A stretch of DNA of 64,000 nt. Origin: Anadara kagoshimensis (taxonomy: Eukaryota; Mollusca; Bivalvia; Arcoida; Arcidae). Under the pieces are notes generated by a model that did not search any database, was not told the DNA's origin, and worked only from the letters and a program-made list of their open reading frames with translations. The stretch spans positions 29,171,403 through 29,235,402 of the forward strand of contig CM037868.1 in the NCBI GenBank assembly GCA_021292105.1, given 5' to 3'. Positions 478 to 44,900 of the stretch are shown one piece after another. A program made the translations under genes and the position numbers. Every line of letters begins with the position of its first letter. Position 1 is the stretch's first letter.

Positions 478-609
478 CTGTGACAATGAATTCCAGAGAT
501 CTTTGGTCACTGCGTTGCCATACTTGTATTTATTTAAGTATGCTGTAATACCACTGTTGAATCGTTCAATTCCCATAACATCACGTAACATACGAATTAT
601 TGAGGATCC
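478..609 (-). CDS. Aminopeptidase exon after the catalytic Tyr; last exon inside the window
   Basis: The acceptor tattttacacag ends at 610 and the donor CAG|gtatgt begins at 477. The exon encodes 44 residues from [13 protein letters not shown] to KDLWNSLSQ, the helical continuation of the M1 catalytic domain. Both ends are in phase 0. No following exon is recognisable in 1-477, so the next one lies outside the window. Confidence 0.93.
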
Positions 610-3217
610 CTGTGTAAAATAAAATCACATGATCATCCATACAAAACATTCTGATGTAAAACAGTGTGTCACATGATAAAAGGACCCTGTGTAAAATAAG
701 TCACTTGATAAAAAGATCCTGTGTAAAATAAGTCACATGATCATCCATACAAAACATTCCAATGTAAAACAGTGTGTCACATGATTTGTAACATAAGTCA
801 CATGATCAAAGGACCCTGAGTAACATAAGTCACACAATCAAAGGATCATACGTAAAGTTTTCCATTTTACAATAAATAAGCCAATAACCATTGACCTTTT
901 ATCATATCATTTACACATCTTTAATGCCTTGACCTTTTTCATATGAACTTGGTTCAAGGTCATGACACACCAGTGACTATTTGAGATAATCTGTATTGAG
1001 CTGTTAGGTGGTTGTATAAATATGTGAAAACAAAACATAAATCAATGACTATAAGAATCTCAGCATGTCCAGGAGACACACCACAAACAGGAAAAGATGG
1101 TAAAAATATTCACAGAATATGTAATAAATCTATGTTACCATGGTTACACAGACATACCTTGCTGTATGATATAGAGTCAAACAGATCATTGATTTCATCA
1201 GGATTTTTAACTTGGACATCGATCGGATGGGAGCTTTTAAGGCTATCAAAGAACATGGCTCTCTGTAAATCATCTTTGATAAACTGATCATTCTGAAATA
1301 ATCAAAAATTAAAATGTTAATGATTACAATACATAAATAAACCTGACCTAAGTTATCTAATTCCAATACCTTTTAAATAAGCCCAAGGTTTGTAAAGGTG
1401 TCTTTATATTTTTCCCAGCGAGATCACACTAGGCTACCAGTATTCCAATATGACCATGACGCACACTCAGGGCAACTTATAGTAACAGCAGTGGATCTTA
1501 ACCTTTTTTGAGATTAAGAATAAGTTTGTGCAAATTTTGATTGTAAGTTTTACAAAATCAGTAATAAAGATTTATTCCTATATTTGACTTGACGGAACAT
1601 GACATGATGTATATTACTTGGGTTAGAATATTTTATCCTACTGTTTCTTCCCCACTTTTCTAGCTATAGGTGACTTGAAGATCTTGATCATCATCACTTT
1701 CATGAACATGACACCATGGAACTATTTTTAAACAATGTACAATACTGGATCCCCATCTTGCATTCTTGGACAGTATTTACACATTACACTCAATTAGAGG
1801 ACGTTAATATTTCACTATATACACAGACTAGAAAATGCTTTCAACTCCAGAAACTACTGGATTTTTTTGCAGTTGTAACTGGCAATCGTACAGTCAAAAT
1901 TTAAACTTCAAAACCATACAACTTACACCAAAATCGTAAGGATAGGCAAGTATGAAGAACAAATACTGTAAACCGTGTATTTTTAGCGGCAGTTTTATTT
2001 TAGCGCAATTGGCGATAAGAGTGACGGCGCTAAAATAAAACTGTCGCTAAAATTTCAAACTAAATATGTACTGTACAGCGCTTAGAACGGGTATGAACGT
2101 ACGTTGAACTTTTCAAATAATAGGATGTCACAGGTGTAGCTTCCGTCAATATTCTCACGTATAATAAGTAATTAGGGATTAATGACCAAGTAAACAGGCC
2201 ACCGACAAGCGGATTAACGGATAAAATAGGGGATGTTAATTATTGTCATTGTGATGCTTACATTGTGACAAGTCTTATTGTCAGGTAATTAAGTTTAATT
2301 GACCAGTTCACCTAACAGTAATTGACTTCACTGATTAAAATCTTAATAATGAATATAAACAATTAGACCCATTGCTCGGGAATTGTTTTTTTTTCTGTGA
2401 TGTCGGCAACATCCTATAAGTCCTCATTGTTGACCTCTAATGATCTAAGCGGCTTTTATTGGTCCCTCGTTTGGTGACAGCAGTTGTCATCTATCTCTCG
2501 GCAGCTTTTCGACAGCTACCTTTCCATACCTTTACCTCTAATGATCTAAGCAGCTTTTATCGGGGTTACATCGACAATGTGTCGAAACATTTGTATTTGA
2601 AATACAAACAGTTGGTATTTAAATGAAAAATAGGTAATTGTCGATTTAAATATGTTTTCAGTAAAATGTGTAATCGACGAGAGCGCAAAATTATGATGCA
2701 AGCGCCCTGCAGACAACTGTCTGTCTTGTGACTTACCGAGATTTTCTCTCAGTTAAAGTCAAACAAATTAAAACACCATTTATTACATAGTTATTTTTAT
2801 TTTTTTCTTGTAACTTGCCGAATACTGGCACCCCCTTCTTAATTTTTTTGGCTAAAAGTTGCGGTAATATAAAGACGTATTATATGTTTCAGTCTGGAAT
2901 TGATTACGCTAAAATTAAACTGCGCTAATATGTTTACCATTCATCAATCGCTAAAATAAGTATGCGCCAATATAAAGCGGTTTACAGTAATTACCATTTG
3001 CCATTTTTTACCGTTCTTCTCTGCAACTTGTTCAGTACCCAGATATTCCATAAAGCTAGCAAAACCTTCATTCAGCCATAGATCATTCCACCATTTCAAA
3101 GTCACCAAATCTCCAAACCACTAAAATTGAAGAAATCAAAAATATTAATGGAAAAAACCAATACTTATCAATATCCAATGAAACCATGACAAACACATTG
3201 TAAAATCACAAATGTGT

Positions 3218-3254
<37 letters not shown>

Positions 3255-6200
3255 TTATAACTTCACAAAATTTGATGACAAAACTGTTTCTAGTGGTATA
3301 GTTATGGTAATATTGAGAGTGTCAATCAGGGCCAACTGCTCAAAGCTGGATTCAGTTAAATTCATTAATTACTGTTAATTACTGTAGTCCAACTTTGTTT
3401 CTTGTACACATGAAACTAAGGAATATTGTCCTTTTGACTTGATAATAATACAGTTCATTAGGGAAATGTTTAAGTTTAATGTTAATTTTACACAAAGTTT
3501 ACATAAAAGTTAAAAAAGTCTGGCTTATTTGTTGACAAATTTTCATGAAATCCATAAACTACACCACAAGAATTTTTAAATATAAAGTCAACTTCTGCAT
3601 TCAAGCTTTGCTTTCCTAGAAAAACAATTATTTCAGATTTTTGCATCAAAGGGGCATAACTCCTACATGGAAACTAAACCTGTCCATTGTGTTTACCTGA
3701 TGAGCTAGTTCATGAGCCACCACTGTGGCTACCCACTGTTGGTCTGATGACGAGGAACCGAGTGGATCATACAGGATAGATGTCATACGATAGGTAATCA
3801 AACCCCAGTTCTCCATGGCACCGGCAGAAAAATCTGGTATAGCTATAAGATCTGAAATGAATGAATGAATGAATGAATGAATGAATAAGAAAAGAACTGT
3901 AAACCATTTTATCTCATCAACATTGTAACAATATCATCACCTGTTTTCTATAGAAATTGTTTTCATTAGATATTTGTACAAACTGTTTTTATACACTTCT
4001 AGAGGTTTTATTCAGTGTATTTCTCATCAAATATTTCAGAATTCTTAGATATTGTATAAACTTTGGATTGCTGTTTGCTTGGACTGTCAGAAGCTGAATT
4101 AGCGTATTCAGGTGACAAAATTTTGGTCTATAAATTTAATAAAATTTTATTAATGTAAAATAGTAAAGTACTGTTTTACAACATTTTCATGGAAAGATGA
4201 AAAGAAAAGGAAAATTAAAATTGACAAGTTAAAGCTGAAATGGGATGTTATTTCACAATTGTCTACCATAAAACCTGACTGGGGAATCCCTAACCATGTC
4301 TTTAATAAAAATATGAATAGCCAACCAAAGATAATATTCCTTTGAGGTTCATAAAGATCTGTAAAATAGTTTTCAAGGGAAGTGGTGGACTAAATGTTGA
4401 TGGAAGACATGGAGTAAACACTATATATCTACCCATTTTGTTTGGGGGTCATTGCAGGCACTTTAGGTGTACTCCAGCCTGAGAATTCAACTGATCACTC
4501 TCTAGCGTTTTACTAAGCACTATTTTGTTTGGGGGACATAGCACTTAGTCTTCCTGCCTAAGGATTCAACCTGTCACTCTCAGGTGATAAACCAGTGTTT
4601 TACTATGATACTGAAACATCTGGACAACAAATGTATTAACCTACTATATACAACATGGCTTACTGAATTCTCTACAATAACCAGAGCCTGATATCTTACC
4701 TTGTTTAGGTAATGGGTATTTTATTAGGTATAGTTTGTCAGAGCCTGATATCTTACATTGTTTAGGTAATGGGTATTTTATTAGGTATAGTTTGTCAGAG
4801 CCTGATATCTTACATTGTTTAGGTAATGGGTATTTTATTAGGTATAGTTTGTCAGAGCCTGATATCTTACCTTGTTTAGGTAATGGGTATTTTATTAGGT
4901 ATAGTTTGTCAGAGCCTGATATCTTACCTTGTTTAGGTAATGGGTATTTTATTAGGTATAGTTTGTCAGAGCCTGATATCTTACCTTGTTTAGGTAATGG
5001 GTATTTTATTAGGTATAGTTTGTCAGAGCCTGATATCTTACCTTGTTTAGGTAATGGGTATTTTATTAGGTATAGTTTGTCAGAGCCTGATATCTTACCT
5101 TGTTTAGGTAATGGGTATTTTATTAGGTATAGTTTGTCAGAGCCTGATATCTTACCTTGTTTAGGTAATGGGTATTTTATTAGGTATAGTTTGTCAGAGC
5201 CTGATATCTTACCTTGTTTAGGTAATGGGTATTTTATTAGGTATAGTTTGTCATAATAATCCATCACAGTGACAGCTGCCTGTAAAGCAAACTTAGCCTG
5301 ATCTATCAGCTCATCTGGGGCGTAAACTCTTACCTACAAACAAATACAATATATATCTTGTAAATAAAGAAATCTTAATAAATAAGGCATCATTTTATCT
5401 TTGTCCTGTTTCTGAATGATGATCAGTGTTTCTATTCTGTTAGTTTGGTTACCAGTGTAGCCTTTAAAAATGGTAAACTGGAAACCGTGGCCAAAAACTG
5501 ATGGAAAACAACAGTGGTCAGTTGCTCGAAGCCTAATTAGTTTAATAAATTGATTAGTCAAAATTTGAATTTTGTATAATTTCAGATATATTGTGAACTT
5601 TATGTTGAAATGTTGAAAATGAATGACAAGTCCATCAAACTAAAGACAATTGTAATAAAACTATAGATTCGATAATGCTATCTTGATTTTATTCATGTTT
5701 TTAATTTCTGCTAATCATGGATTAAACTACATCAAGCTTCAAACAACTAGGTCCAGGTGTAATGGAATTACCAGTTACAATCCCTTAAAATCCCATCTCT
5801 AGATACCCAGCAGTCTGGTTTGCTCTGGTGGTAAACCACTTGTCTATAGTGGTTAAGGTCCTTATTTTCCCCCTCTTTTTCAAATTAAATTATCAAAAAT
5901 CAAAAGTTACTACGGTCAAATAAGAAATTGGTTGTAAAATGGCAACTTAATGTCCCTATAACACCTAATGTAATGTGACCCTCTATATAAAATCCACCTG
6001 TCTTATAAGACCATTCTGCTGATTCCATTGTTTAGTCTGAATAAATTATACAGGTGGTCTGAATAAATTATACAGGTGCTATGTTTAATTACAGTCCAAC
6101 CTGCCTTAACAGCCACTTCTATATAAAGACCACCTGCTTATAAAGGCCAAGGCAGTAGAATTATATCCCAATTGTTTTTATTTCACATTATTTGAACCCT

Positions 6201-9200
6201 TGGGTGGCCTTTATAGAAAGGCTTGACTGTATTCATTTTCTACCTGTCACCAGACTGTAAAAAATGTACAGTAAGATTAAAAGATTATTATACTTAGTGA
6301 GTAGATTTCAGATCTCTAACCTACAGACCATTACACAGCTACCAACAAAAGGATCTTATCTTGAATATGATTGGTGTAACTATCTAACCTGGAATATTAT
6401 TGGCTGAATTTTGAAATTCTTTGTTTAAATCACTTTTCTAGAAGAATTTGGCAAGTGTGCCTGTGTTTGTGTTTTAGGAAAGTTGAAGATAGATTTTTCT
6501 GTCAATTTTGGACACAGAATTCTAGTTAAGAAGTTCAAAGTCATAAAAATGAAAAAGGTAAGATCTGTTTATGTATTTTAAAGTTTAAGAAGGTTTTTTT
6601 TGTTGTTTTTTTCTAAAGGAAAGATTGGAGTGGGAAGGAGGTGAAGGAATGGGGGGGGGGATTAAGATCTTTAATTAAGTATGCCCAATTTAGGCAAGCC
6701 TTTCATTTGTATATTTCCATGTAAATTTCAATTATCACTGAAAACCCTTTTGAAAAATCAAGCCATTTTGAACAAAATTTTGCAGGAGGGGGGGGGGGGG
6801 CACAAAAGGAAGTTTTGCCTAAATTTTAAAAAGAATTAAGATATAGGTTTAATTCGTATGGACATATGTTGTATTTATGTTATGTTTTCTCCCAGCTGTA
6901 TAATTTCTATGATCAGATTTTAATGCCCACAGAAAATCCATAGATTTCCATGGAAATGCCACAAAACTCCATGCATAGTGTAGATGTCCATGGAATGTGC
7001 CACAGAAATGTAAAATCTGACATTTTTTCTGTGGTCATATACAACTTTCCAAAGAATTTTGTGGCAATACTTCATATTTATTATTGCCATAGATTTTCAG
7101 TAGAATTTTAACATAAAAATGACAGAAATTCCATGGATTCCTGCCAAATTTACCAATGGGTGTATAGAATACATATTTTCATGTACCCCTGTTTAATATA
7201 CAGTAGAACATGTATATAAAGACCACATAACCCAAGGAATGGTCTTTGAAGATAGGTGGTCCTTATAGAGAAGTTATTTATGGTTGAAATGCTGTTAAAA
7301 TACTAGACCTAATAAAGGACCTAATGGACAGATGTTCTTTATATAGAGGTAGTCTGAAGAACAGGTTTACCTAATGGACAGATGTTCTTTATATAGAGGT
7401 AGTCCATATAACAGGTTTACCTAATGGACAGATGTTCTTTAGATAGAGTTAGTCTATATAACAGGTTTACCTAATGGACAGATGTTCTTTATATGGAGGT
7501 AGTCTGTATAACAGGTTTACCTAATGGTCAGATGTTCTTTATATAGAGGTAGTCTATATAACAGGTTTACCTAATGGACAGATGTCCTTTATATAGAGGT
7601 AGTCTGTATAACAGCTTTACCTAATGGACAGATGTTCTTTATATAGAGGTAGTCTATATAACAGGTTTACCTAATGGACAGATGTCCTTTATATAGAGGT
7701 AGTCTGTATAACAGGTTTACCTAATGGACAGATGTTCTTTATATAGAGGTAGTCTATATAACAGGTTTACCTAATGGACAGATGTCCTTTATATAGAGGT
7801 AGTCTATATAACAGGTTTACCTAATGGACAGATGTTCTTATATAGAAGTAGTCTATATAACAGGTTTACCTAATGGATAGATGTTCTTTATATGGAGGTA
7901 GTCTGTATAACAGGTTTACCTAATGGACAGATGTCCTTTATATAGAGGTAGTCTATATAACAGGTTTACCTAATGGACAGATGTCCTTTATATAGAGGTA
8001 GTCTGTATAACAGGTTTACCTAATGGTCAGATGTTCTTTATATAGAGGTAGTCTATATAACAGGATTACCTAATGGACAGATGTCCTTTATATAGAGGTA
8101 GTCTATATAACAGGTTTACCTAATGGACAGATGTCCTTTATATAGAGGTAGTCTATATAACAGGTTTACCTAATGGACAGATGTTCTTATATAGAGGTAG
8201 TCTATATAACAGGTTTACTCAATGGTCAGATGTTCTTTATATAGAGGTAGTCCATATAACAGGTTTACCTAATGGACAGTTTTTCTTTATATAGAGGTAG
8301 TCTGTATAACAGGTTTACCTATTGGACAGATGTTTTTATATAGAGGTAGTCCATATAACAGGTTTACCTAATGGACAGATGTTCTTTATATAGAGGTAGT
8401 CTATATAACAGGTTTACCTATTGGACAGATGTTTTTTATATAAAGGTAGTCCATATAACAGGTTTACCTAATGGACAGATGTTCTTTATATAGAGGTAGT
8501 CTGTATAACAGGTTTACCTAATGGACAGTTTTTCTTTATATAGAGGTAGTCTGTATAACAGGTTTACCTAATGGACAGATGTTTTTTATATAGAGGTAGT
8601 CCATATAACAGGTTTACCTAATGGACAGATGTTTTTTATATAGAGGTAGTCTATATAACAGGTTTACCTAATGGACAGATGTTCTTTATATAGAGGTAGT
8701 CCATATAACAGGTTTACCTAATGGACAGATGTTCTTATATAGAGGTAGTATCCTTTAAATATCCTTTGGGGTCTAAGCAGGTATAGAACAAAAATATCCT
8801 TTCAGGTCTAAGCCAGTACAGAACAAAAATATCCTTTCGGGTCTAATCCCAGCACAAAACAAAAATATCTTTTGGGGTCTAAGCCAGTACAGAACAAAAA
8901 TATCCTTTGGGGTCTAATCCCAGCACAAAACAAAAATATCCTTTGGGGTCTAAGCCAGTACAGAACAAAAATATCCTTTGGGGTCTAATCCACTGCAGCA
9001 CAAAACAAAAATATCCTTTGGGGTCTAAGCCAGTACAGAACAAAAATATCCTTTGGGGTCTAAGCCAGTACAGAACAAAAATATCCTTTGGGGTCTAAGC
9101 CAGTACAGAACAAAAATATCCTTTGGGGTCTAATCCCAGCACAAAACAAAAATATCCTTTGGGGTCTAAGCCAGTACAGAACAAAAATATCCTTTGGGGT

Positions 9201-12200
9201 CTAATCCCACTGCAGCACAAAACAAAAATATCCTTTGGGGTCTAAGCCAGTACAGAACAAAAATATCCTTTAGGGTCTAAGCAAGTACAGAACAAAAATA
9301 TCCTTTGGGGTCTAAGCCAGTACAGAACAAAAATATCCTTTGGGGTCTAAGCCAGTACAGAACAAAAATATCCTTTGGGGTCTAAGCCGGTACAGAACAA
9401 AAATATCCTTTCGGGTCTAAGCCAGTACAGAACAAAAATATCCTTTGGGGTCTAAGCCAGTACAGAACAAAAATATCCTTTTAGGTCTAAGCCAGTACAG
9501 AACAAATATATCCTTTAAGGTCTAAGCCAGTACAGAACAAAAATATCCTTTTGGGTCTAAGCCAGCACAAAACAAAAATATTGTTTGGGGTCTAAGCCAT
9601 GACAGAACAAAAATATCCTTTGTGGTCTAAGCCAGTACAGAACAAAAATATCCTTTTAGGTCTTAGCCAGTACAGAACAAAAATATCCTTTCGAGTCTAA
9701 GCCAGTACAGAACAAAAATATCCTTTCGGGTCTAAGCCAGCACAAAACAAAAATATCCTTTGTGGTCTAAACCAGTACAGAACAAAAATATCCTTTCAGG
9801 TCTAAGCCAGCACAAAACAAAAATATCCTTTGGGGTCTAAGCCAGTACAGAACAAAAATATCCTTTGGGGTCTAAGCCAGCACAAAACAAAAATATCCTT
9901 TGGGGTCTAAGCCAGTACAGAACAAAAATATCCTTTGGGGTCTAAGCCAGTACAGAACAAAAATATCCTTTGGGGTCTAAGCAGGTATCAAAAAAATATC
10001 CTTTGGGGTCTAAGCAGGTATAAAAAAAATATCAAAATAATATACCAGATTTAAAATAAGGAAATCCTAGTTAAGAAATGATCGTGAAAATGGGGCCTGT
10101 CCATTTATTGGAAAGCTGGTAGATTGAAGTTTAAAGACATACCACACAGTCACCCTGGGGTTTGAACACATGACCCTTAAGTCTGAATCATTGACCACAA
10201 GGTCATATGTCTCCAAAAGCCTTATTTACTCAAGAAAAAGGAAGTAAATTGCTTCATTGGTCCTGCCTGTTTAGATCTATCAGTTTATCTTAAGCTTGCT
10301 CATATCCAAGGTTTGTAGAGTAATATATGTTTTTTTTTATTTAAGGAGACACAAGATAACACAGATGTGTTTTGATTGGATCACCTTTGGCAAATACACC
10401 TGTCAGTTAACGGGATAAAATATTCTAGAAATATCATGTGATAACAAAAGAACCAGGCACCAAGAATGAAAGACACAAAGGTATGAAATACACAGCAGTA
10501 CAAAATATATAAAGTTATATTAGCAACACAACTAATAAATGATTTCCCCGCTCATGTCAGTTTACTTGTTTAAGGTCAGTGGTTTCTCTGGTTTCCTCCA
10601 CCATCCAAGAATTTACCATCTCAGTATATGACTAGGATATAAAGCACCATTATTCCACACCATTTTAAATGGACACTAGACTTGTACTATAGATCCAGTT
10701 ATTTTAGAGGACCTTTGTTCTATAGCAAATTTCTGAAAGCAATGACATATTAAGGATCTTTATTTTGAATCCATGTTTTGGTGAAAAAATTATAAATTTT
10801 CATTAGACAATGAATGAATTATGGCAACATTTGAGTGAAATAGAGATAAACTGTGAATTTATTTCAAAATAACAACCTGGATCTATAGTACAATGACAGA
10901 ATGGCATCCAGTGGTGTGGTTCAAGTACCTTTGTACAGTCCATATTATAAACTATATAAATACTAGTATATAATATCATTTAAATCAATTTTGGTTTTCA
11001 ATATACAGTAAAGATCATCCATGGGTCTTAAGAAATACAGGAATGTACTTTGTACTTTATTTTTTACTGAGGTGGTCACTTTAGCAGGTGTTACTGTAGA
11101 GACAAGTGGTCTTTATAAATATTCAACAAACTTTTCCATAAAAAGTTGAGGTCATCATCAGACTTAATTATTATGTACTAAACACTTACAAAAAGTGTAT
11201 AAAGTTGTACAGACTGATGGAAATGTCAAGGTCACTTAGGGGTCATTTTCATCACCAACACTATAGATGTAGAAAAAATATTAAAATTGAGAATTTGTAC
11301 TGGATTGTCATCAAACTTGATTACAGTGTATCTAAATGGGTTAAATTTCAGAGTTATTGATTGATTAAATGGGGATTTAATCCCAGTCAAGAATATTTCA
11401 CTTATATCAAGATGTCACCAGATATTGGTGCATTGGCAGAATTTTTTACCTTTGCAGTGCATGAGGCAATCTGAAAAGACTGTTCTTTAAAATGCCATGC
11501 CTGGCATGACAAGGAGCATCAGTTTTCAAGGTTCCCCTGAAGAACCCATTGGCTTTCATTTCTAAATGCAGTGCTTGGTAAATGAACAGTCACTACCCTG
11601 GATGGGGTTCCAACCTATACTACTGTAGTAGTTAAGATATATTTCAAACGTTTATAATAACATCATGAGTAGATAAGGTTAAGGACATAAGTAGATAATG
11701 TCAAGGTCAGAGTAGATAATGTCAAGGCCATAAGTAGATAAGGTCAAGGTCATGAGTAGCAATATTTGCAGTATATCAATGTTTAATCATTTTTGTGGTG
11801 ATGGACAATAATCTACACGTACAGTGATCACCACTGGTCTGTTAAAACATAGCACATATCTACAGACTAGTAATGGTTATAATTGATTGTGTTATAAAGA
11901 ACAATATCAACTGACTGTCATCATATGGATGTATATTACTGTTAATCAGGACATTTTTGTATCAGTTAATGTTTAAGAAGTGGTATTTCAATTATTAGCA
12001 TACTTTTCTTGGTGCAAACACAAGTAAATCATAACATCATATAATATTCACAAATGTGTAATTATCATGTGTTGTTTACACGAAACTAAAGTAAAGGCAA
12101 AAAATCCCTGATTAACAGTAATAAAGATAGGAACTAAAAAGACACAAACTGTGTCAAAGTCCCTTATGGTATTATATATCATGAAGTATGGATGATACTA

Positions 12201-18200: not shown

Positions 18201-21200
18201 GGAAAGGGGAGGGGAAGGGTGGGGAGGGAAGGGGGATGGGAAGGGAAGGGGAGGGGATGGGGAAATGGGGAGGGGAAGGGATGGGAGGGATGGGAAGGGG
18301 GATGGGGGGAGGGGAAGGGTAGGGTAAGGGATGGGAAAGGGGATGGGAGGGAAGGTAGGGGATGGGATGGGGAGGGGAAGGGGGATTGGGAGGGGAAAGG
18401 GATGGGAAGGGGAAGGGAGGGGATGGGAGGGAATGGGATGGGAGGGGAAGGGGGATTGGGAGGGGAAAGAGGGTGGGCAAGGGATGGGGAAATGGAGAGG
18501 GGAAGGGGATGGGAGGGGAAAGGGGGATGGGTAGGGAAGGGATGGGGAAAGGGGAGGGGGATGGGAGGGAAGGGGATGGGAAGGGGAGGGATGGGGAAGG
18601 GGATGGAAGGGGGATGGGTAAAGTAGGGGAGGGGAAAGGGGGATGGGTAGGGAAGGGGAGGGGATTGGGAAGGAAGGGATGGGGATGGAGGAAGGGGAAT
18701 GGGGATGGGTAGGGGGATGTGGATAGGGAAGGGGAGGGGAAAGGGGGATGGGGAAGGGGAAGGGGAGGGAAGGGTAAGGGAAGAGGAAAGGGGGATAGGA
18801 AAAGTGGAACGGAATGGGGTATGGGAAGGGAGAATGGCAAGGGGAAGGGAAGGGTGGATGGGAAGGGGGAAGGGGATGGGGAGGGAGAAGAGTAGGGAGG
18901 GTTAAGTCAAATTACAGTTTATACATACCTGGACATTGCCCTTTGTGGTTGCGTTGATATATGCATAATTTGGTGCCACTATAAATGTGGATGGAGAAGG
19001 GGAGGGGAAAGGGGATGGGGAAGGGGAAGGGGAGGGAAGGGTAAGGGAAGAGGAAAGGGGGATAGGAAAAGTGGAAGGGAATGGGGTATGGGAAGGGAGA
19101 ATGGCAAGGGGAAGTGAAGGGTGGATGGGAAGGGGGAAGGGGATGGGGAGGGAGAAGGGAAGGGAGGGTTAAGTCAAATAACAGTTTATACCATACCTGG
19201 ACATTGCCCTTTGTGGTTGCGTTGATATATGCATAATTTGGTGCCACTATAAATGCTACTAGGTAGGTACTCATTTTGACGCTGCTCTCGTATGTATCCA
19301 CCATTAAATTATTCTCATACTGATCTGATGACTTTAACGGTGTATTAAACAAGGTAAGATACTTTTCTCTCTTACTATAGTCAGAGGGGAAGGGGGATTG
19401 GGAGGGGAAAGAGGGTGGGCAAGGGATGGGGAAATGGAGAGGGGAAGGGGATGGGAGGGGAAAGGGGGATGGGTAGGGAAGGGATGGGGAAAGGGGAGGG
19501 GATGGGAGGGAAGGGGATGGGAAGGGGAGGGATGGGGAAGGGGATGGAAGGGGGATGGGTAAAGTAGGGGAGGGGAAAGGGGGATGGGTAGGGAAGGGGA
19601 GGGGATTGGGAAGGGAAGGGATGGGGATGGAGGAAGGGGAATGGGGATGGGTAGGGGGATGTGGATAGGGAAGGGAGGGGAAAGGGGGATGGGGAAGGGG
19701 AAGGGAGGGGGAAGGGTAAGGGAAGAGGAAAGGGGGATAGGAAAAGTGGAACGGAATGGGGTATGGGAAGGGAGAATGGCAAGGGGAAGGGAAGGGTGGA
19801 TGGGAAGGGGGAAGGGGATGGGGAGGGAGAAGAGTAGGGAGGGTTAAGTCAAATTACAGTTTATACCATACCTGGACATTGCCCTTTGTGGTTGCGTTGA
19901 TATATGCATAATTTGGTGCCACTATAAATGTGGATGGAGAAGGGGAGGGGAAAGGGGGATGGGGAAGGGGAAGGGGAGGGAAGGGTAAGGGAAGAGGAAA
20001 GGGGGATAGGAAAAGTGGAAGGGAATGGGGTATGGGAAGGGAGAATGGCAAGGGGAAGTGAAGGGTGGATGGGAAGGGGGAAGGGGATGGGGAGGGAGAA
20101 GGGAAGGGAGGGTTAAGTCAAATAACAGTTTATACCATACCTGGACATTGCCCTTTGTGGTTGCGTTGATATATGCATAATTTGGTGCCACTATAAATGC
20201 TACTAGGTAGGTACTCATTTTGACGCTGCTCTCGTATGTATCCACCATTAAATTATTCTCATACTGATCTGATGACTTTAACGGTGTATTAAACAAGGTA
20301 AGATACTTTTTCTCTCTTACTATAGTCAGTGAAAACTTGGCCTTCATAGCAGGTTCATCAAAACATGGAAATGCCTCACGGGCTCCTGTAGGTTCCATCT
20401 GTGTTGTACCTAGATATCTAAATATAGAATTTGTATATAAACTATAATACCCCTCTTGTGGGAAAATATAAACTAAATAGGGTATATACACTTAGTTAAA
20501 GTAATTTTGAGAATAAAACCTTAACCCTGCAACATCAGAAGTTTAAATTGACTTGTAAATAATTCCTAAAATCAAAGTGATTGAAGAATTATAGTCCTAT
20601 ATTATACTTATGTCTTTATAACAAGGATACAGTTGAACACACACTTAATTCATATTCTGATTCCAGCTTTGTCAATTGACACCAAAAGTAAAAACAGCTG
20701 ATGTAGCAACTGTTGTGAAACACTTGGTTGGTCTTAAAATTGTAAACATTGATCAAATTATTATTATTTTCAGAATTAAAAGTATGAAGCAATATAGTTG
20801 CTGATGCAAACTTAAAGATAAATTATCAGTACTACAGTCACATGACTTTATTTTAGTCATGGAATATTATCTTTTATCTAGTGTCATGCAGCAATACTTT
20901 TTTGGTTATAATAACACATGTCTGTGCAGGCCCTTATCAGACCACACTAAGTATGATAAAGTGAGTTACATTTGTATCTGCTTTGTATTAGCGTTCACTC
21001 ATGGTCTCTACTAGCTGCTAGGTTCTTAAGACAGCATTTGTTGCTGATTCCAAATGGGCATTTTTTGATAAAATGATAAGTTTGCAGCAATGTGACATAA
21101 ATAAGAATGTCTTAAGGTTATGCCACGAGTCCCTGACTAGATTCAAACCCTAATCCTTGTAGACATAGTCTGACCCACAACTGTTTGGGCCACATGCTTC

Positions 21201-22607
21201 TTACTCATCTTTCTTTTCAGGGTTAACACTAGCTCTCAAAAAATAGAGCCAAAACATGGGCAAGTTTTAAAATTTAAGAGCTAATTTATATGTTAAGAAA
21301 AAAGTAAAACTTAAAGAAACTGAAAGTGACAAAAATGTCTAAAATGTATTTCATCTAATCTGTTGTATAGATTGTTCTTAATTATATAGAATTTATAAAA
21401 CTTGTTTTATTTTTTATTTTTGTGTAAGAGAGAGAAAAAAATCAGTGATTTATGTTTGCCTCATATGGCAATTATAACAATTTTGGAGCCAAAACTATTA
21501 GCAGAAAGCCATTTTTGGAACCAGAAATTATTGAAAATATCAATGGCTGAATTGGCAAATTATATGGCAAATCTAACCTTCATTTCACTATACTTAACTT
21601 GCAAATGATAAATAAATAACTACTTAATTCAGTAATAAATACATATACAAGAAGACTCTCCTCCTGAACTCTGTAAAACAATTTCTATTTCTACAGGAAA
21701 ACCGACAATCAGAATATATGATACTTTCTGCATTATTATAATACAGTTTAGCTACATGTATTTCATAATTATAGATACTAAGGATTTCTCTGACCAAAAC
21801 CACTAAATTTGCTAGCTAGCGGACGACATTGACACTGGTTGGGGGTGAATACACTGGTGTGGGGTGGGGTGGGGTGGGGGTGAATACACTGGTGGTGGTG
21901 GGGGTATGAATACATTTGTGAGGTTGAATAGACTGGTGGGGGTTTAACTACTGTTTTCATCATTACTTACCTGACTTCACCATTTTTACTTGTATAACTA
22001 CTCAGATAAAATCCAGATAATTTTTTCACCAATTCAGCTTCAAATTTGATCACCATTTCATACTCTTTATCTATTTTCATGTTTTGGTCAACCTGTATAT
22101 ACAACTGGTTGTATTTTACAAATTCCAACACTTTAACAACCTTCAAGTTTATATTTGATTTTTCTAATTTGACTTGTATTTTATCATTATCACTCGTCAG
22201 TTTCATATTCTTTATATGTAAAATTATCTTGTCAGTTTCTTTCAAAATTTTAAGTTTTATTTTAACATTTCCACTAAATATTCTCTGTGATATGTTTGGA
22301 TGTAAAAATATATCGTATGACAATGGACTGATGTCTTCTGGTAATCGGATATCCTTCCATGGAAAAGGTTCACCATTTGTTGCCACATAACTGACAGTAG
22401 TCTGTTGTATAGGGGAAACTGTTGTGACCTCTGGCTCACAATTAGAACTGGTTCCTTTCTGTGTTAGGGTTGCCACTAAAACAACAATTAATATGACAAT
22501 TGCCATGGCAACAATAATGGCTGTGGCTCTCCCCTTACTACAAATCAGGAGTTTACATCTGTATAATAAGGACGGCTCATACACTGACTTTCTGTTAAGA
22601 TTTTCCC
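478..22607 (-). CDS. M1 zinc aminopeptidase, aminopeptidase N-like (multi-exon, 3' end beyond window)
   Basis: This host gene is split over seven well-supported exons: 22607-21971, 20417-20141, 5333-5213, 3851-3697, 3120-2995, 1292-1158 and 609-478. All introns are GT/AG and every junction keeps phase. The product should be a type II membrane ectoenzyme that removes N-terminal residues from peptides. In order it shows a basic cytosolic tail, one hydrophobic segment, a Ser/Thr stalk, the N-terminal beta domain (PCFDEP), the exopeptidase motif GAMEN, zinc site HELAH followed 18 residues later by Glu in WLNEGF, and catalytic Tyr in ISYSK. That set is diagnostic of peptidase family M1. The aminopeptidase N versus glutamyl aminopeptidase subtype is unresolved. 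No C-terminal (ERAP1_C-like) domain is present because the gene runs past position 1. Very long repeat-filled introns (5334-20140, and upstream of 22607) are unusual. The 5' end is uncertain; see the candidate upstream exons. Confidence 0.95.
610..860. repeat. Degenerate intronic tandem repeat with 'aagtcacatgatcaaagga'
   Basis: Several imperfect copies of a unit containing 'tgtgtaaaataagtcac', 'atgatcaaaggaccct' and 'catccatacaaaacattc' run from about 618 to 855 in the intron between exons 478-609 and 1158-1292. Confidence 0.6.
1158..1292 (-). CDS. Aminopeptidase exon with catalytic tyrosine (ISYSK)
   Basis: The acceptor gattatttcag ends at 1293 and the donor AAG|gtatgt starts at 1157. The exon encodes 45 residues, with SSHPIDV and then [12 protein letters not shown]. 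These match the M1 'ASSHP...FDAISYSKG' stretch that carries the transition-state-stabilising Tyr. Both ends are in phase 0. Confidence 0.95.
1293..1963. other. Intron sequence, no feature seen
   Basis: Unique-looking AT-rich intron between exon 1158-1292 and the MITE at 1964. A short open frame at 1716-1904 has no coding character. Confidence 0.5.
1964..2989. mobile_element. MITE-like element with TACTGTAAACCG terminal inverted repeats
   Basis: The left end tactgtaaaccg (1964-1975) is the exact inverse of the right end cggtttacagta (2978-2989). Subterminal 'cgctaaaataaaactg'-type motifs occur in both orientations near each end, which is typical of a non-autonomous DNA transposon. A module at about 2431-2562, with ctatctctcggcagcttttc, is shared with the MITE at 55438-55663. 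The right terminus lies at intron position +6 of the donor after exon 2995-3120. Confidence 0.75.
2995..3120 (-). CDS. Aminopeptidase catalytic exon: third zinc ligand (WLNEGF)
   Basis: The acceptor cttcaattttag ends at 3121 and the donor ATG|gtaatt begins at 2994. The exon gives 42 residues starting [20 protein letters not shown]. The Glu lies exactly 18 residues after the HELAH histidine, as required for the M1 zinc site. Both ends are in phase 0. The donor is not a strong consensus, and from intron position +6 onward it is MITE sequence (element 1964-2989). Confidence 0.96.
3214..3252. repeat. (GT)n microsatellite
   Basis: Uninterrupted GT dinucleotides over about 35 bp in the intron between the two zinc-site exons. 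Confidence 0.95.
3697..3851 (-). CDS. Aminopeptidase catalytic exon: GAMEN and HELAH zinc site
   Basis: The acceptor cattcatttcag ends at 3852 and the donor CAG|gtaaac starts at 3696. The exon encodes 52 residues including [18 protein letters not shown], which binds the substrate N-terminus, and closes on VVAHELAHQ, whose two His are zinc ligands and whose Glu is the general base. It enters in phase 1 and leaves in phase 0. The residue after ITYR is Met, where many M1 enzymes have Glu. I infer nothing functional from this. Confidence 0.97.
3856..3888. repeat. (ATGA)n microsatellite adjoining a splice acceptor
   Basis: Tandem 'aatg' tetranucleotides lie immediately upstream (minus sense) of the acceptor at 3852. 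On the coding strand the polypyrimidine tract is built from 'cattcatt' repeats. Confidence 0.9.
3889..4683. other. Intron sequence
   Basis: AT-rich intron between the minisatellite and exon 3697-3851. Two loosely similar 'ttttgtttggggg' segments occur near 4436 and 4522. Nothing else is recognised. Confidence 0.5.
4684..5254 (-). repeat. 57-bp x 10 minisatellite made from an exon end plus its splice donor
   Basis: Ten near-identical 57-bp units each contain the coding end [13 protein letters not shown], the donor (aag|gtaaga) and 17 bp of intron ending tatcaggct. Two units (about 4752-4813) carry caat|gtaaga instead of caag|gtaaga. Because 57 is divisible by three and no unit has a stop, the frame stays open through the array on the minus strand and also on the plus strand. 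Near-identity of the copies implies recent expansion or ongoing homogenisation. Confidence 0.97.
5213..5333 (-). CDS. Aminopeptidase exon ending in YPLPKQ; 3' end amplified as a minisatellite
   Basis: The acceptor gtttgtag ends at 5334. The exon reads [19 protein letters not shown] and then ends YPLPKQ plus one base, using the donor AAG|gtaaga at 5212. M1 enzymes have this peptide just before the GAMEN exon, and joining to 3851 restores [15 protein letters not shown]. The last 40 bp of exon and the first 17 bp of intron are tandemly repeated downstream, giving ten candidate donors. The most upstream donor yields the canonical protein. Retention through the array would add 19-residue in-frame repeats. 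Confidence 0.93.
5334..7310. other. Start of the 14.8-kb intron
   Basis: AT-rich intron. It contains a MITE-like insert (6091-6230), short poly-G runs near 6650 and 6786, and at about 7200-7300 a segment with 'ataaagaccac' and 'ggtggtccttatagag' that resembles the founder of the following 50-bp array. No exon is seen. Confidence 0.6.
6091..6230. mobile_element. Small MITE with 'tataaagGCCACC' interior
   Basis: The ends acagtccaacctgcc and (inverted) acagtcaagcct pair imperfectly. The interior carries mirrored 'tataaagaccacc' and 'ggtggcctttata' segments. Length is about 140 bp. Confidence 0.55.
7316..8752. repeat. 50-bp minisatellite, about 28 copies
   Basis: The unit carries 'aggtttacctaatggacag', 'atgttctttatatagaggta' and 'gtctatataac'. 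Copies differ by scattered substitutions and one-base indels, with sub-variants (gtcctttatat, gttctttatat, ccatataac, ctgtataac) that alternate and suggest higher-order structure. Each unit is partly self-complementary (tatataga/tctatata). Confidence 0.95.
8756..10030. repeat. 35-bp minisatellite, about 36 copies
   Basis: The unit contains 'aaaaatatcctttggggtct' followed by 'aagccagtacagaac'. Variant units with 'aatcccagcacaaaac' or a short insertion (actgcag) alternate with the main type in the first half. It directly abuts the 50-bp array. Confidence 0.95.
10140..10215 (-). mobile_element. Possible tRNA-derived SINE head
   Basis: On the minus strand a B-box-like 'gtgttcaaacccc' follows a 'tgaccttgtggtcaatg' segment at tRNA-like spacing. 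The similarity is weak, with no clear tail or target duplication. Confidence 0.3.
11398..11632 (-). mobile_element. Diverged SINE copy (same family as 58955-59276)
   Basis: It shares 'atatcaagatgtcaccag', 'gcagaa(a)tttttacctttg' and 'gaacagtcactac' in the same order with the better-preserved copy at 58955-59276. A degenerate inverted B-box (gatggggttccaacc) lies at its right end. Confidence 0.6.
11664..11760. repeat. Short tandem repeat 'aagtagataaggtcaaggtc'
   Basis: Four imperfect 22-26-bp units with 'agtagataatgtcaaggtca' occur in the long intron. Confidence 0.8.
12640..12935. repeat. Minisatellite with 'acacaaattgtgtccaagtc', about 4-5 copies
   Basis: Units of about 60-70 bp carry 'aataaagattgggattgac', 'aagacacaaattgtgtccaa' and 'gtcccgga'. 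The core acacaattgtgt is palindromic. Diverged single units sit upstream at about 12130-12310. Confidence 0.85.
13515..13700 (+). mobile_element. tRNA-derived SINE
   Basis: A tRNA-like head begins near gatgcctaggtgactgagtgg (A-box like) and reaches a good B-box, ttgattcgaatccc, near 13578. It is followed by a unique body (gtgagaaaatttgtcag, ggtggttttcccaggac) and an A-rich stretch at about 13674. A complete folded tRNA is not evident, so I call a SINE rather than a tRNA gene. Confidence 0.6.
13686..13806. repeat. Two-copy direct repeat of about 66 bp
   Basis: 'ggtaaagtaat' plus 'ctgactggggtgtgaaacac' and 'cattcctaccaaccca' occurs twice in tandem, nearly identical. Confidence 0.85.
13810..15240. 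other. Intron sequence without recognised feature
   Basis: AT-rich intron. A duplicated segment, 'ggtgtgttgagttagt' then 'caaatgttt(t/a)tgatctactg', occurs at about 14538 and 14590. No exon is seen. Confidence 0.5.
15247..15640. repeat. 27-30-bp minisatellite 'gtcaaggtcatcaatgttac'
   Basis: About 14 units read 'gtcaaggtcatcaatgttac' plus 'a(a/t)ggcta'. Units with 'aatatgttac' or 'taaaggtcgtc' variants fall in the second half and recur in order, indicating block duplication. Confidence 0.92.
15641..17460. other. Intron sequence without recognised feature
   Basis: AT-rich. Short open frames here have no coding character. At about 16500-16700 there are 'tactgtaaacatattta' and inverse 'tactgcaaaaataaatac' segments, possibly a decayed MITE. 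Confidence 0.45.
17461..17757. repeat. Tandem repeat of a SINE-body segment, about 41-50 bp unit
   Basis: Units contain 'gagatgtcaccagctatagc' and 'aatggcatcttcacttaca'. The 'tatcaa(g/a)atgtcaccagctata' core matches the SINE body at 58980 and 11405, so the array seems to have grown from a SINE fragment. Confidence 0.8.
17812..18905 (+). repeat. G-rich polypurine tract (GGGGAA/GGGAT-type), first block
   Basis: More than 1 kb of almost pure purine on the plus strand, built from 'gggaagggga', 'ggggatggga' and similar words. Frequent runs of three or four G could form quadruplexes, and the strand bias could support triplex DNA. Long proline/serine frames on the minus strand and glycine/arginine frames on the plus strand are composition artefacts. 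Confidence 0.97.
18929..18987 (-). pseudogene. Partial copy (59 bp) of the aminopeptidase exon 20141-20417
   Basis: It is nearly identical to the last 59 bp of the true exon, including a donor-like gtatgt. It ends abruptly in polypurine sequence, with no acceptor. Confidence 0.9.
18988..19168 (+). repeat. Polypurine tract, second block
   Basis: G-rich purine sequence between two exon fragments. It repeats nearly word for word at 19931-20112. Confidence 0.95.
19197..19384 (-). pseudogene. Partial copy (188 bp) of the aminopeptidase exon 20141-20417
   Basis: It matches the 3' two thirds of the true exon and keeps the donor gtatgg. One T is missing in the run at about 19353 (actttt versus acttttt at the true exon), so it is out of frame, and it has no acceptor. 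It breaks into polypurine sequence after 'ctatagtcag'. Confidence 0.93.
19385..19845 (+). repeat. Polypurine tract, third block
   Basis: Duplicate of 18443-18902, joined directly to the truncated exon copy at 19384. Confidence 0.95.
19872..19930 (-). pseudogene. Second 59-bp copy of the aminopeptidase exon end
   Basis: Counterpart of 18929-18987 in the second 943-bp unit, with donor gtatgg. No acceptor. Confidence 0.9.
19931..20112 (+). repeat. Polypurine tract, fourth block, next to the true exon
   Basis: It ends about 30 bp downstream (in gene sense) of the authentic donor at 20140. Confidence 0.95.
20141..20417 (-). CDS. Aminopeptidase exon with PCFDEP motif
   Basis: The acceptor tatatttag ends at 20418 and the donor CAG|gtatgg begins at 20140. 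The exon encodes about 92 residues from [10 protein letters not shown] through [14 protein letters not shown] to NATTKGNVQ, the standard M1 N-terminal-domain stretch leading to the catalytic domain. It enters in phase 2 and leaves in phase 0. The 3' 188 bp of this exon with its donor is copied at 19197-19384, and shorter pieces are copied at 19872-19930 and 18929-18987. This copy is intact and has the only acceptor, so it is the working exon. Confidence 0.95.
20418..21970. other. Intron between the PCFDEP exon and the membrane-anchor exon
   Basis: AT-rich. Around 21120-21190 the minus strand has a tRNA-like 'gggtttgaatctag' B-box, a possible SINE head. Near 21838-21950 a 'ggggtgaatacactggtg' tandem repeat occurs. 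No exon is seen. Confidence 0.5.
21971..22607 (-). CDS. Aminopeptidase exon: cytosolic tail, membrane anchor, stalk, start of N-terminal domain
   Basis: The exon follows an acceptor-like tract (ttttctttattttgtag) ending at 22608 and ends at a strong donor (CAG|gtaagt) at 21970. It opens with two bases that complete a codon and then [12 protein letters not shown]. About 30 residues later comes a hydrophobic helix ([19 protein letters not shown]), a short Thr-rich stalk, and the M1 entry motif [18 protein letters not shown]. It closes in phase 2 on GEV plus AG. An in-frame ATG at 22629 could be a start, but it lies within the acceptor polypyrimidine tract, so I favour splicing from an upstream exon. 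Confidence 0.9.
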
Positions 22608-28189: not shown

Positions 28190-28960
28190 TTCATATATGT
28201 CAACCATAAAATGGAGACACACTGACCAGGAAATACAGCTAGTTGACCGATGCTCGATTTCCCTGTCTCACTTTGGTCAAGACAGATCACACGAACAATC
28301 TCATGCATTAATTGGATTTCTCTGACTTTTAAATTTGATTCAATGAAAATATTAAGGCCATTCTGAATGAGACACGATCATTTACGGACACTAAATTCAT
28401 TTTGCAAGAAAACGTCAACAAAATTTGATGACATAATTTTCAGAAGGAACAAATGTTGGAATGAAAACTGAACATTTCATGCAATTATGTTTTAAAAATC
28501 ATGTTTTTATGTTGCAAGTGTGTGAGTAAAAGATTCTTACACCAGTGTTAAACAGATATCTTGAATGAGGATAAATAAAAATTCTGCCCTGAATGAGCTT
28601 CAGTACATTTTGTTACTTATTTGCAACATAAAAACACGATTTGTAAAAGAATATTTGCATCAAATGTTCCATTCTAGTGCCAACATACTTGTCTTTATAA
28701 AATGATGTGCGGGGTTTAAAAAGTTTTGTTGACATTTCACATAAAATAATAATAACATCATCAATATAGTGTGTGAAAGTGATGAATAGAATCTATCATG
28801 AGTATCCATGTAGGATAGGGAAATCTCACACGAGGGGTTGAATATTTCAGTCAGAGCCGAGGGTGAGATTTCCCTATCCTAAATAGATAAACTCATGATT
28901 GATTCTTTTTCTTCCATTTTGATGACAATTTTTGGCTTGCCGTATCAGTCACATCGACAT
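28190..28960. mobile_element. Fold-back repeat element, copy 1
   Basis: The block 28220-28440 ('gatttccctg', 'tctgactttttaa' type, 'gaatgagacacgatca', 'aacgtcaacaaaatttgatg') is shared with 44520-44830. Its right part forms a hairpin: arms 28791-28832 and 28860-28905 pair imperfectly through 'ggatagggaaatctcac' and 'gtgagatttccctatcc'. A further mirrored 'gatagaaatttcta'/'aaatctctatctcc' region lies at 29255-29320. No coding is seen. Confidence 0.65.
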
Positions 28961-31465
28961 CGACGCCATCTTTGTAAATCTAACTTTGTTATTTAACGTT
29001 TTACATAAAAATAAATATGACCATCGGACAGAATGTACCTGATTTTGGTTTATACAAAATGTATAAACTAGAAAACAAAGCCATTTATTCTAATCTCCCA
29101 AAATAAACATTTGAAACGCAGTAAAAATATCTAAATTTTGGAGACTCAGGTGTCATTTTCCCGCAAGACGACGTCATGTCTCCACGATATTACGTCATTT
29201 TAATTGTCCTTTGATTGTGACATCACTGAAAGCCGCAAGAGGAGGTGAAGATAAGCACGTGTAGGTGAAGATAGAAATTTCTACCATCGTTTATTCAAGC
29301 GGAAATCTCTATCTCCGATGTAGGAAGATGGAAGAATATGACATTGAAGCTGGGAAAAGTGATCCTACCCTAGGATGGGATATAGAAATCCCACATTTAA
29401 AAATCTACAGGAGGCAGCACTGAAAACTCTACCCATGGGTGAGAACATAGCCCTAACCCCCACCCCAAATTCTTACCAAATCCTTAAATATGTAGTGTTG
29501 ACTGTTCTTTACAGAGCCAGTACCGGTAGGTTTGAGGATTATTTTTACACTAGGAGTCACTATACTGATGATGGCATTTAATAATAACTGCATTATATAC
29601 AACACTGTGATTTACAGATTTAAAATGTAAATATAAACTACAGTACTAACAGATGCTCCATCAATCCTTAATCAAGTCATGTAAACTCATCAGGTAAATG
29701 TATTGGTAATATTTGAGTATTTATCCTACATAATCTACATCAGGTTCAACATTACAATACCTAACAGGCCCCTGTTTCACAATCATATCTTGACTTATAT
29801 TTCCTTACATATAAGCTAACCAATTTGATTTTATGACATCCAGAAATGGTGTTAATTTAAAGATCACAGCCAACTTTATTAGAACATTTATTTTTAGTTT
29901 CATCAAATATGTTTGTTGCTAAATTAAAAAGGATTGCCAAAATGTTGCTAATTTCAAGTTCAAGAAAATCTAAGTGATTTCAACAAAGCCAGCAAGGTGC
30001 CAAAAGTTGTCTGCTACTGGTTTGGATTTGGATTAAGTTTGTTGCAACTTCTAGTAATTTACATTTTCTGAGTATGTTTTTGTAATGCATATTACTCCAT
30101 GCTTGCTGCCTACCTCAGGACATTTGTCTTCTACTTTAAGAAAAGACTGCTTAATTAAGAAATGATTGTGAAACTATACGACCAGGCTCCAGTTTCACAA
30201 TCATTCCTTAACTAAGATTTTCTTTCACTTAAATCTGGCAAGTTTTGATGATCTTACATTGCATAACTAATAAAAAGTTTCAACAAAATTAGAAAAAAGA
30301 TGTAATAAGCTTAGGGTGGTCTTCAAAATGACACCTTACATTCATGAATATCTTGAAAATTTACAAAATTATTCAAATTTCAACATTGTCAGATTTAAGT
30401 TAAGGGAAATCTTACTAAACTGGGACCAAGTCTAGTAACATCACAAACAAAGCTGACATACGCAGTAATAAGTCTAGTGATATGCCAATAACCTTTCAAA
30501 GCCAAAAGATTTAGGTTTATTGTTAATTTATCTTTACAGCTGCTACTAATTACTAGCTGACTTAAGATTTCATAGCTCTAACTTGAACTGTTTACAGGCC
30601 TCAGATAAAACACTAAGCAACTAATCCAGAATGTGCTGAATGAGCCCAGTGACGATTTATTAACACTCTGCCCAGTGCCAATTAGATTATTTGTCAAACA
30701 TCCTCCTTGATTAAAATTAAATTACCAAAATAAATGCTAAAATAAAACTAAAGTAAAATAAAACTACATTGTTACCAATTTTTTCTAGTTATTTGGTACT
30801 GAATACACAACACTTGTTTACTTGACACAATGTTAAATAGTTTGAGAAAGTCCTGTTGTCTAGTATCTCCAATTAACTATTATACAATGCTGACATGATT
30901 TTGGTTTCTTAAGTCACCAATTTCTTTCAAAACATCAATAAAAGGATAAGTAATAACAGTTACTTTTCCTAGTAAAACATTTATTCTGATCGTATAATAT
31001 CTGTTTTGTGAGTAGACAAGAGAACCTTAATGCTGAGGATATTCAAATATTTCATGCATACAGAAGTTCAATAGTCAATTACATTAATAATGGAGAAGAT
31101 TAAAAATTCATATGTTTGCAAATTAATAAGTGCTTGTCCTAAAAATACTTCTAGCCTCAGTTTATATATAAATGTTTAAAATAGTAACAAAATTACAAAC
31201 CCATACCAAAAAGACAGAGTAAAGAAAAGGGTACAAGAAAAAGGAACAAAAATATGTCGGGGAAAGGTATGCCTTTTTAAACAAATTTTGGAACCATGGT
31301 TCACTTATATTCAAAATGACCATCATATTAATACCTACAATATTCTAATATACATCAGTGATAGCTACTGCACCTATCTGTGACAGAATTATATAAGGAA
31401 CATAGCACTTAACATGTTCAAAAATTGTAATAAAGTTTAATTTTAAAAGAAGTATTTTATAAAGG
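28961..31465. other. Intronic or intergenic sequence with short MITE-like mirrored segments
   Basis: At 29765-29815 and 30187-30230, 'cctgtttcacaatca' and 'ccagtttcacaatcattcct' segments recur, with an inverse 'ttaagaaatgattgtgaaac' at about 30153. These point to a decayed MITE pair. Otherwise unremarkable. Confidence 0.45.
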
Positions 31466-33828: not shown

Positions 33829-33829
33829 T

Positions 33830-36515: not shown

Positions 36516-36775
36516 CTTAAATCTTCAGGATGGTAACTGTACTGGGTGATTTATTATTAAATTATTTTTGTCGTTATGTAATATATATATTTGTTAACAG
36601 AAAATATTAATATTGTATTACTTTAATGAATTATGAAACAATACATATGTTTATAAAATAGTGCATTATTGATTGTGAGTTGAAGCAGAGATCCCGGATA
36701 TGATATATCTAAAACTTTCTCACCATAATTTATTCAAAATGCTTTCAAATTTAAAATAAAATATAAAAAGTTTAC

Positions 36776-44335: not shown

Positions 44336-44339
44336 ACAA

Positions 44340-44472
44340 TTATGGACTTTTTAGTGGTTGTATATGGTGTGATATTCACCGGAAAAATAAATATTGATCG
44401 AGGCGACAGCCGAGGTCAATATTTATTTTTCCGGTGAATATCACACCATATACAACCACTTAAAGTCCATAA
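44340..44472. repeat. Near-perfect 58-bp palindrome (hairpin)
   Basis: Arms 44340-44399 and 44415-44472 are almost exact inverse copies ('ggttgtatatggtgtgatat' and 'cggaaaaataaatattga'), with a loop of about 15 nt (gaggcgacagccgag) and one two-base length difference. Confidence 0.97.
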
Positions 44473-44900
44473 CTGTTTTATTATATAATTTAGCCACTGT
44501 GGCACTTCGGTTGACAAACCTGTGACCAGGCAATCTAACTATTTTACCGATGTTAGATTTCCCTGCCCACTCTGGTTGATCACACTAAAATTATCCCGCA
44601 TTAGTTAGATCAATCTGACTTTTTAAGTCTGATTCTATGAAAAAATAAGTGGCATTCCGGATGAGACACAATTACACACTACATTGTAAATTGATAATGC
44701 CATAACGTCAACGTTCTATGAAAAAAATAACAAGACACAATCACTTGCGTACACTTAATTGATGACGTTCTAATCATTTTACGGAGAACGTCAACAAAAA
44801 TCGATGACGTACCACCGAATTTGATATTCACCGGAAAATCTGTAGTATATGATGTGAGATCCAATGGTCACGTGTTACAGTTTTAGCCAATCATAAAGAT
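44473..44900. mobile_element. Fold-back repeat element, copy 2
   Basis: It shares 'gatttccctg', 'gaatgagacac'-type, 'aacgtcaacaaaa' and 'gatgacgt' blocks with 28190-28440. Near its right end 'tttgatattcaccggaaaat' (44819) repeats the arm of the adjoining palindrome. Confidence 0.65.

What the first reader, a model, noticed from the sequence alone, without database searches (positions are those of the whole stretch)
4684..5333. A splice donor turned into a 10-copy in-frame minisatellite
Seen directly: the 3' end of an essential M1 exon and its 5' splice site (57 bp) are repeated ten times, each unit with a donor-like aag|gtaaga or aat|gtaaga. The unit is a multiple of three and stop-free. Any internal donor would therefore add n x 19 residues ([19 protein letters not shown]) next to the active-site GAMEN exon without a frameshift. 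Most tandem repeats disrupt splice sites. This one multiplies a site while preserving frame, so it could be a length-variable splicing switch or neutral decoys.
Basis: partly seen in the sequence, partly recalled or inferred. Interest (0 to 1): 0.8.

Follow-up and report, generated by a model that had tools for sequence, protein, structure and literature searches.

The report
Splice donor copied into tandem repeat
In an animal peptidase gene, the end of one exon and the splice site after it have been copied ten times in a row, most likely as harmless downstream copies that the cell ignores; similar arrays sit at other splice sites of the same gene family in this genome, so such sites are good natural tests of how cells choose among identical splice sites.

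Summary
On the minus strand, 5252-4683 holds ten 57-bp units. Each carries the last 40 bp of a 121-bp M1-aminopeptidase exon (5333-5213, phase 1) and its donor. Eight units read CAAG|GTAAGA, units 8-9 CAAT|GTAAGA; the frame stays open throughout. The gene looks functional: seven exons, 527 open codons, dN/dS 0.13 against a second copy 377 kb away. That copy has five units at the same breakpoints. It is a paralogue or an uncollapsed second haplotype, so unit number varies.

Frame preservation is not a rule. Donor-spanning arrays occur at 4 other M1 donors found here: exon 2 of this gene (4 copies; 1 in the second copy), and units of 42, 43 and 86 bp in three other M1 genes. In these four, later donors bring a stop codon. 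Best reading: intronic decoys, first donor used; a published human-cell library shows that the first of two equal donors wins. An in-frame switch in this one gene is not excluded; no RNA was examined. A human precedent (IFI6) exists. The recurrence, three times at the exon-3 donor and in none of 40 myosin matches, is the interesting part.

The parts
5213..5333 (-). Native exon E3 of the M1 aminopeptidase gene (121 bp; [40 protein letters not shown] + 1 base); donor GT at 5212-5211
   Evidence: identical in the second copy (121 of 121)
4683..5252 (-). Ten 57-bp units, each 40 bp of exon end + donor + 17 bp of intron start; unit 1 (5252-5196) contains the native exon end and donor, units 2-10 lie inside the intron if the first donor is used
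4740..4853 (-). Units 8 and 9, with T at the last exonic base (CAAT|GTAAGA)
3852..5212 (-). Intron 3 if the first donor is used (1361 nt)
3697..3851 (-). Exon E4 with GAMEN and HELAHQ motifs; its acceptor is preceded by a (CATT)n microsatellite (3856-3886)
20141..20417 (-). Exon E2; its donor (CAG|GTATGG) is the second multiplied donor of this gene
18929..19929 (-). Three further copies of the E2 end + donor inside a GAAGGG-rich array (exon ends at 19872, 19197, 18929); the second copy of the gene has only the native one
21971..22607 (-). Exon E1 of the model (hydrophobic stretch, by eye; start of Peptidase_M1_N); upstream exons not sought
2995..3120 (-). Exon E5 ([23 protein letters not shown]...)
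1158..1292 (-). Exon E6
478..609 (-). Exon E7; the gene probably continues beyond the window start

Best explanation
A tandem duplication whose ends lay 40 bp inside exon E3 and 17 bp inside intron 3 of a working M1 aminopeptidase gene was amplified into a minisatellite. The native donor is unit 1. Units 2-10 are intronic decoy donors that transcription exposes later. Because identical donors are chosen in order of appearance, the first is used and the array stays almost invisible in the mRNA, so it can grow and shrink neutrally. Shown here: anatomy, an intact and constrained gene, a copy-number difference, and repeated occurrence in M1 genes regardless of frame. Inferred: that donor 1 is used, and that the first-donor rule measured in human cells holds in this animal. 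A low level of +19, +38 ... residue isoforms from donors 2 and 3 is likely leakage.
For: Gene under constraint: 527 codons open in both copies, 10 synonymous and 5 nonsynonymous differences, dN/dS 0.13, p=1.6e-4. The intron position is the same in two distant M1 genes that lack an array at this donor. Copy number 10 and 5 with identical breakpoints and an identical main unit, although intron 3 outside the array differs at 16 of 819 sites, so the arrays turn over. Four other donor-spanning arrays in M1 genes do not keep the frame: 42 bp x 32 with a stop in unit 2; 86/39 bp with 15 donors matching one pattern, stop in the first extension; 43 bp with 14 donors, stop in the first extension; exon 2 of this gene with a stop before its second donor. 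There only donor 1 gives a full reading frame, so first-donor use is required if those genes are functional. The 42-bp array shows no coding constraint: 5 stops against 3.2 expected; 15 of 51 distinct changes synonymous against 25% expected. Published: when both tandem 5' sites carry the same consensus the first is predominantly used, with no such order effect for tandem 3' sites (PMC6783452, section 7 read).
Against: No RNA evidence. The rule comes from human cells with two donors, not ten; that paper itself speaks of earlier conflicting evidence, and I recall older in vitro work favouring the intron-proximal site. Donor strength was not scored. The frame of this particular array is open in both copies, as a switch would need. 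None of 40 control myosin matches has an array across a match end, so I cannot show that such arrays are tolerated at donors of other gene families. The excess of donors (5 of 58) over acceptors (2 of 58) that the rule predicts is not significant, p=0.44.
Confidence: 0.72

Rival explanations
1. Length-variable splicing switch: several donors are used, and the enzyme carries 0 to 9 extra 19-residue units ([19 protein letters not shown]) just before the strand that leads to GAMEN, with the range set by repeat number.
For: Unit is a multiple of three and open throughout in the window, with the same unit in the second copy; 8 of 10 donors identical. Human IFI6 is reported to use two downstream repeat units as donors (sentence in PMC4526556).
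Against: The four other donor arrays found in M1 genes break the frame, so open frame is not what preserves such arrays. About 0.21 of random units would be in frame and open. Insertion next to the active site of a constrained enzyme is likely to be harmful (inference).
Confidence: 0.13
2. Self-cancelling AGGT array (Rogers-type proto-splice sites): each unit offers CAAG|GT, so donor i can be joined to the AG of a later unit, removing whole units, and any combination gives the same mRNA. The array would be a nest of 57-nt introns or recursive splice sites.
For: Eight of ten units contain CAAGGTAAGA, an AG directly followed by a donor, with CCTAAT upstream as a possible branch site (sequence; branch motif recalled). 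Fission-yeast introns made of 24-nt repeats with proto-splice sites are reported (PMC3629103 passages).
Against: The AG is preceded by AA, the pyrimidine tract is poor, and 57 nt is short for an animal intron (by eye and from general knowledge; no acceptor score was computed).
Confidence: 0.05
3. Assembly artefact: unit number inflated, or the second copy created by leaving two haplotypes in the assembly.
For: The second copy is colinear with the window wherever tested between 0.2 and 46.5 kb, at 80-97% in the pieces (lowest in arrays) and 94-97%, as an uncollapsed haplotype would be.
Against: Both copies carry the array at the same breakpoints, the two T variants are adjacent, and other donor arrays with different units occur in other M1 genes. 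A false duplication would only turn 'paralogue' into 'allele'.
Confidence: 0.1

Closest known systems
[quoted passage not shown] the paper itself was not held, seen only as a citation and one sentence in PMC4526556 and as a citation in PMC2572611)
   Same: A minisatellite in which repeat units serve as splice donors
   Different: There downstream units are reported as used donors; use is untested here. Unit length there is 12 nt and the array begins near an exon end (both recalled) against 57 bp here; I know of no family-wide recurrence there
[quoted passage not shown] PMC4974935, introduction read; fission yeast 24-nt repeat introns, PMC3629103 passages)
   Same: Tandem duplication copies splice signals in register so the protein can stay unchanged
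   Different: There a new intron arises; here an old, conserved intron is lengthened and its donor multiplied
Tandem donor (alternative 5' splice site) competition, 'first come-first served' (PMC6783452 section 7)
   Same: Identical donors in series; order decides
   Different: Designed two-donor library in human cells; here 4 to 32 natural copies of a donor, depending on the array

Membership tests
Minisatellite providing multiple splice donor sites (IFI6 kind) | Array at the end of a coding exon whose units carry a donor-like site | tested here: met
   10 units, 8 CAAG|GTAAGA, 2 CAAT|GTAAGA
Minisatellite providing multiple splice donor sites (IFI6 kind) | Downstream units are used as donors in transcripts | not testable with these tools
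   no RNA data in any tool
Minisatellite (variable number) | Unit number varies | tested here: met
   10 and 5 units in the two copies held in the assembly; whether paralogues or alleles is open
M1 aminopeptidase (ERAP/LNPEP/APN group) | Peptidase_M1_N and Peptidase_M1 domains, GAMEN, HEXXH | tested here: met
   PF17900 9e-18 and 2e-23, PF01433 2e-20 and 3e-12; HELAHQ and GAMEN in E4; best PDB match ERAP2, 3.8e-80
[quoted passage not shown]
   Same intron position and phase in two distant M1 genes without an array there

The most novel reading that the evidence does not exclude
The exon-3 donor of M1 aminopeptidases is a recurrent birthplace of donor-spanning minisatellites (57, 43 and 86 bp units with different ends in three lineages). 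More generally, because the first of several identical donors wins, 5' splice sites are permissive nurseries where tandem duplication can amplify coding sequence inside introns unseen, building reserves of exon copies that a splicing change could later expose.
Probability: 0.25. Interest if true: 0.7.

Novelty: new member of a known kind. Interest (0 to 1): 0.5.

Why it matters
Arrays of 4 to 32 near-identical natural donor copies after one exon, in several related genes and with different frames, give a ready natural series for asking which of many equal splice sites a cell picks. If only donor 1 is used, the first-donor rule holds far beyond two sites and outside mammals. If not, an enzyme's length varies with repeat number. 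The recurrence also warns gene annotation: these arrays look like extra exon sequence.

Tried and rejected
RNA structure: the 674-nt exon plus array does not fold better than shuffles (z -0.91, 20 shuffles). The window's junction forms a small UUACCU/AGGUAA hairpin, but none of five M1 junctions is significant (z from -1.24 to 0.67); a hairpin-driven hot spot is dropped.

Frame selection: rejected as a general cause (see the best explanation). Enrichment of arrays at splice sites of this one gene: rejected, 2 of 7 donors against 2.1 expected.

Genome-wide rate of donor arrays: not obtained. A pattern search for three spaced CAGGTAAG did not complete.

Control used instead: 40 of 87 Myosin_head matches, picked by me mostly from the upper part of the list with near-duplicates skipped, with 300-bp flanks; several match ends are not exon ends. 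Eight of the 40 stretches hold some TRF row: one lies inside the match (L085), one ends 11 bp before it (L065), none crosses a match end. The 58 M1 exons are hand-listed. Left out: the second copy's exons, the array copies of exons, and two rows without arrays (C12:21836068 and C12:18842435). The 18 PF01433 matches without loci were not looked at unless they lay in stretches fetched otherwise.

Mistakes mended: exon ends of E2 and E5 were one base short, corrected. I first read window 26328 as the end of the duplication; one search shows similarity resuming. One search was also cut by my own head -120. Windows 31.4-41 kb and 46.5-64 kb were not tested for the second copy.

Relatives of other species: none held. 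Papers: searches; two searches were rejected for a character in the terms. Passages of PMC8724738, PMC1877881 and PMC12783039 were looked at and gave no direct test of ten equal donors.

Full report
What is there. The window lies on C12 of a 1.115-Gb assembly in 36 contigs; size, introns and gene content say animal (inference). On the minus strand from about 22.6 kb to the window start runs an M1 aminopeptidase gene. Seven exons could be placed, and joined they read 527 codons without a stop. Pfam finds Peptidase_M1_N and Peptidase_M1; the best PDB matches are ERAP2 and ERAP1. The next exon starts at 3851, and the frame of E3 continues open through all ten units.

Is it remarkable by itself? 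Tandem arrays cover 25% of the window and 31% of the gene span; random placement would put 2.1 of the 7 donors in arrays, and 2 are. Being a multiple of three and open has a chance of about 0.21. So neither the overlap nor the frame needs selection.

Second copy. A DNA search finds the locus again 377 kb away with five units, all five CAAG|GTAAGA, and the same left and right breakpoints. Coding differences over the seven exons are 10 synonymous and 5 nonsynonymous (dN/dS 0.13, p=1.6e-4); intron 3 outside the array differs at 16 of 819 sites. Similarity is colinear where tested up to window 46.5 kb: 94% at 27.7-31.4 kb, 97% at 41-46.5 kb, pieces of 80-97% below 26.3 kb. It is therefore either a large segmental duplication or the other haplotype left in the assembly. 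In both cases the array predates the split and unit number has changed since. Exon 2 is different: its end and donor occur four times in the window gene (exon ends at 20141, 19872, 19197, 18929) and once in the second copy, so that event is probably younger.

Recurrence. A PF01433 search of the genome gave 48 exon matches. Looking at the 30 loci it returned plus larger stretches I found further arrays across splice sites. At C5:6483k the HEXXH exon's end and donor repeat 32 times with a 42-bp unit. At C5:6463k exon 3's end and donor form 86-bp units, some with 39-bp partial units, with 15 donors matching one pattern. At C12:12846k exon 3's donor sits in a 43-bp unit, 14 donors. Two acceptor-side arrays lie in the same C12:12844-12847k gene (182 bp x 5.9 and 82 bp x 1.9). 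Exon 3 is 121 bp in the three exon-3 cases. Counting 58 hand-listed native M1 exons, with the second copy left out, 5 donors and 2 acceptors lie in arrays; in 40 myosin matches of 87 none does (donors p=0.077, both ends p=0.043). Flanks of M1 exons are also richer in tandem repeats (10.4% against 1.8% and 3.9% in the two myosin batches), so the difference may be one of repeat-rich surroundings. Exon 3 is over-represented: 3 of 7 against 2 of 51, p=0.010; leaving out the window gene, 2 of 6 against 1 of 45, p=0.033. These tests were framed after seeing the data, and exon ends outside the window gene are mostly match ends. Independence of the three exon-3 arrays is inferred from their different unit lengths and ends; an ancestral array with unit turnover is not excluded.

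What the other arrays say about mechanism. In none of the four other donor arrays does the frame stay open to the second donor's junction. In the 42-bp array there are 5 stop codons where 3.2 are expected at random, 15 of 51 distinct changes are synonymous against 25% expected, and 23 of 32 donors are intact. So neither the reading frame nor the extra donors appear to be kept. If those genes make protein, donor 1 must be the one used. This matches a designed library in human cells, where the first of two equal 5' sites predominates and no such order effect is seen for 3' sites (PMC6783452 section 7). I therefore read the window array as intronic decoys behind a used first donor. That step is inferred, since no RNA could be examined. 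The predicted donor excess over acceptors (5 against 2) is in the right direction but not significant, p=0.44.

Comparison with the known. A minisatellite giving multiple splice donors was described in human IFI6 in 1995; I saw only its citation and one sentence about it. Tandem duplication of AGGT segments is a classical model of intron gain, but the intron here is old: two distant M1 genes share its position and phase without an array there. The finding is thus a further member of a known kind. What I did not find reported, in ten full-text searches of an open-licence library (most subscription papers are not held), is repeated donor arrays in one gene family, three of them at the same donor.

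Open points. Whether the second copy is paralogue or allele, whether donors 2 and later are ever used, and how common such arrays are genome-wide remain undecided.

Noticed in passing
window 18929-20417 (minus strand): Exon 2's end and donor occur 4 times inside a GAAGGG-rich array, one of them within a 430-bp copy at 99.5%; the second copy of the gene has one only.
   Followed up: yes
L010-L013, C5:6481994-6483335: 42-bp x 32 array repeating the end of the zinc-site exon (RVAVVVAHEISHQ) with its donor in another M1 gene.
   Followed up: yes
L036/L044/L048, C12:12844k-12847k: One M1 gene with a 43-bp donor array after exon 3, a partial duplicate of exon 4's acceptor side and a 182-bp x 5.9 array across the acceptor of exon 5.
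   Followed up: partly
window 3856-3886: A (CATT)n microsatellite forms the pyrimidine-rich tract of exon 4's acceptor, so both ends of intron 3 are tandem repeats.
   Followed up: no
window about 5503-5754: About 250-bp insertion absent at this place from the second copy; a related piece (76%) lies at L004 5778-6028, so probably a mobile element.
   Followed up: no
window 184-46500 and C12:28794k-28846k: Colinear duplication where tested, 372-377 kb apart: segmental duplication or uncollapsed haplotype.
   Followed up: partly
window about 44331-44943 and 28785-29339: Two roughly 600-bp stretches with many copies in the genome at 88-96% (40 of about 12,000 candidates scored in each): interspersed elements.
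   Followed up: no
window 33829-36518, 60868-61959, 7319-10033: Very large minisatellites (up to 60 copies); 25% of the window is tandem repeat.
   Followed up: partly
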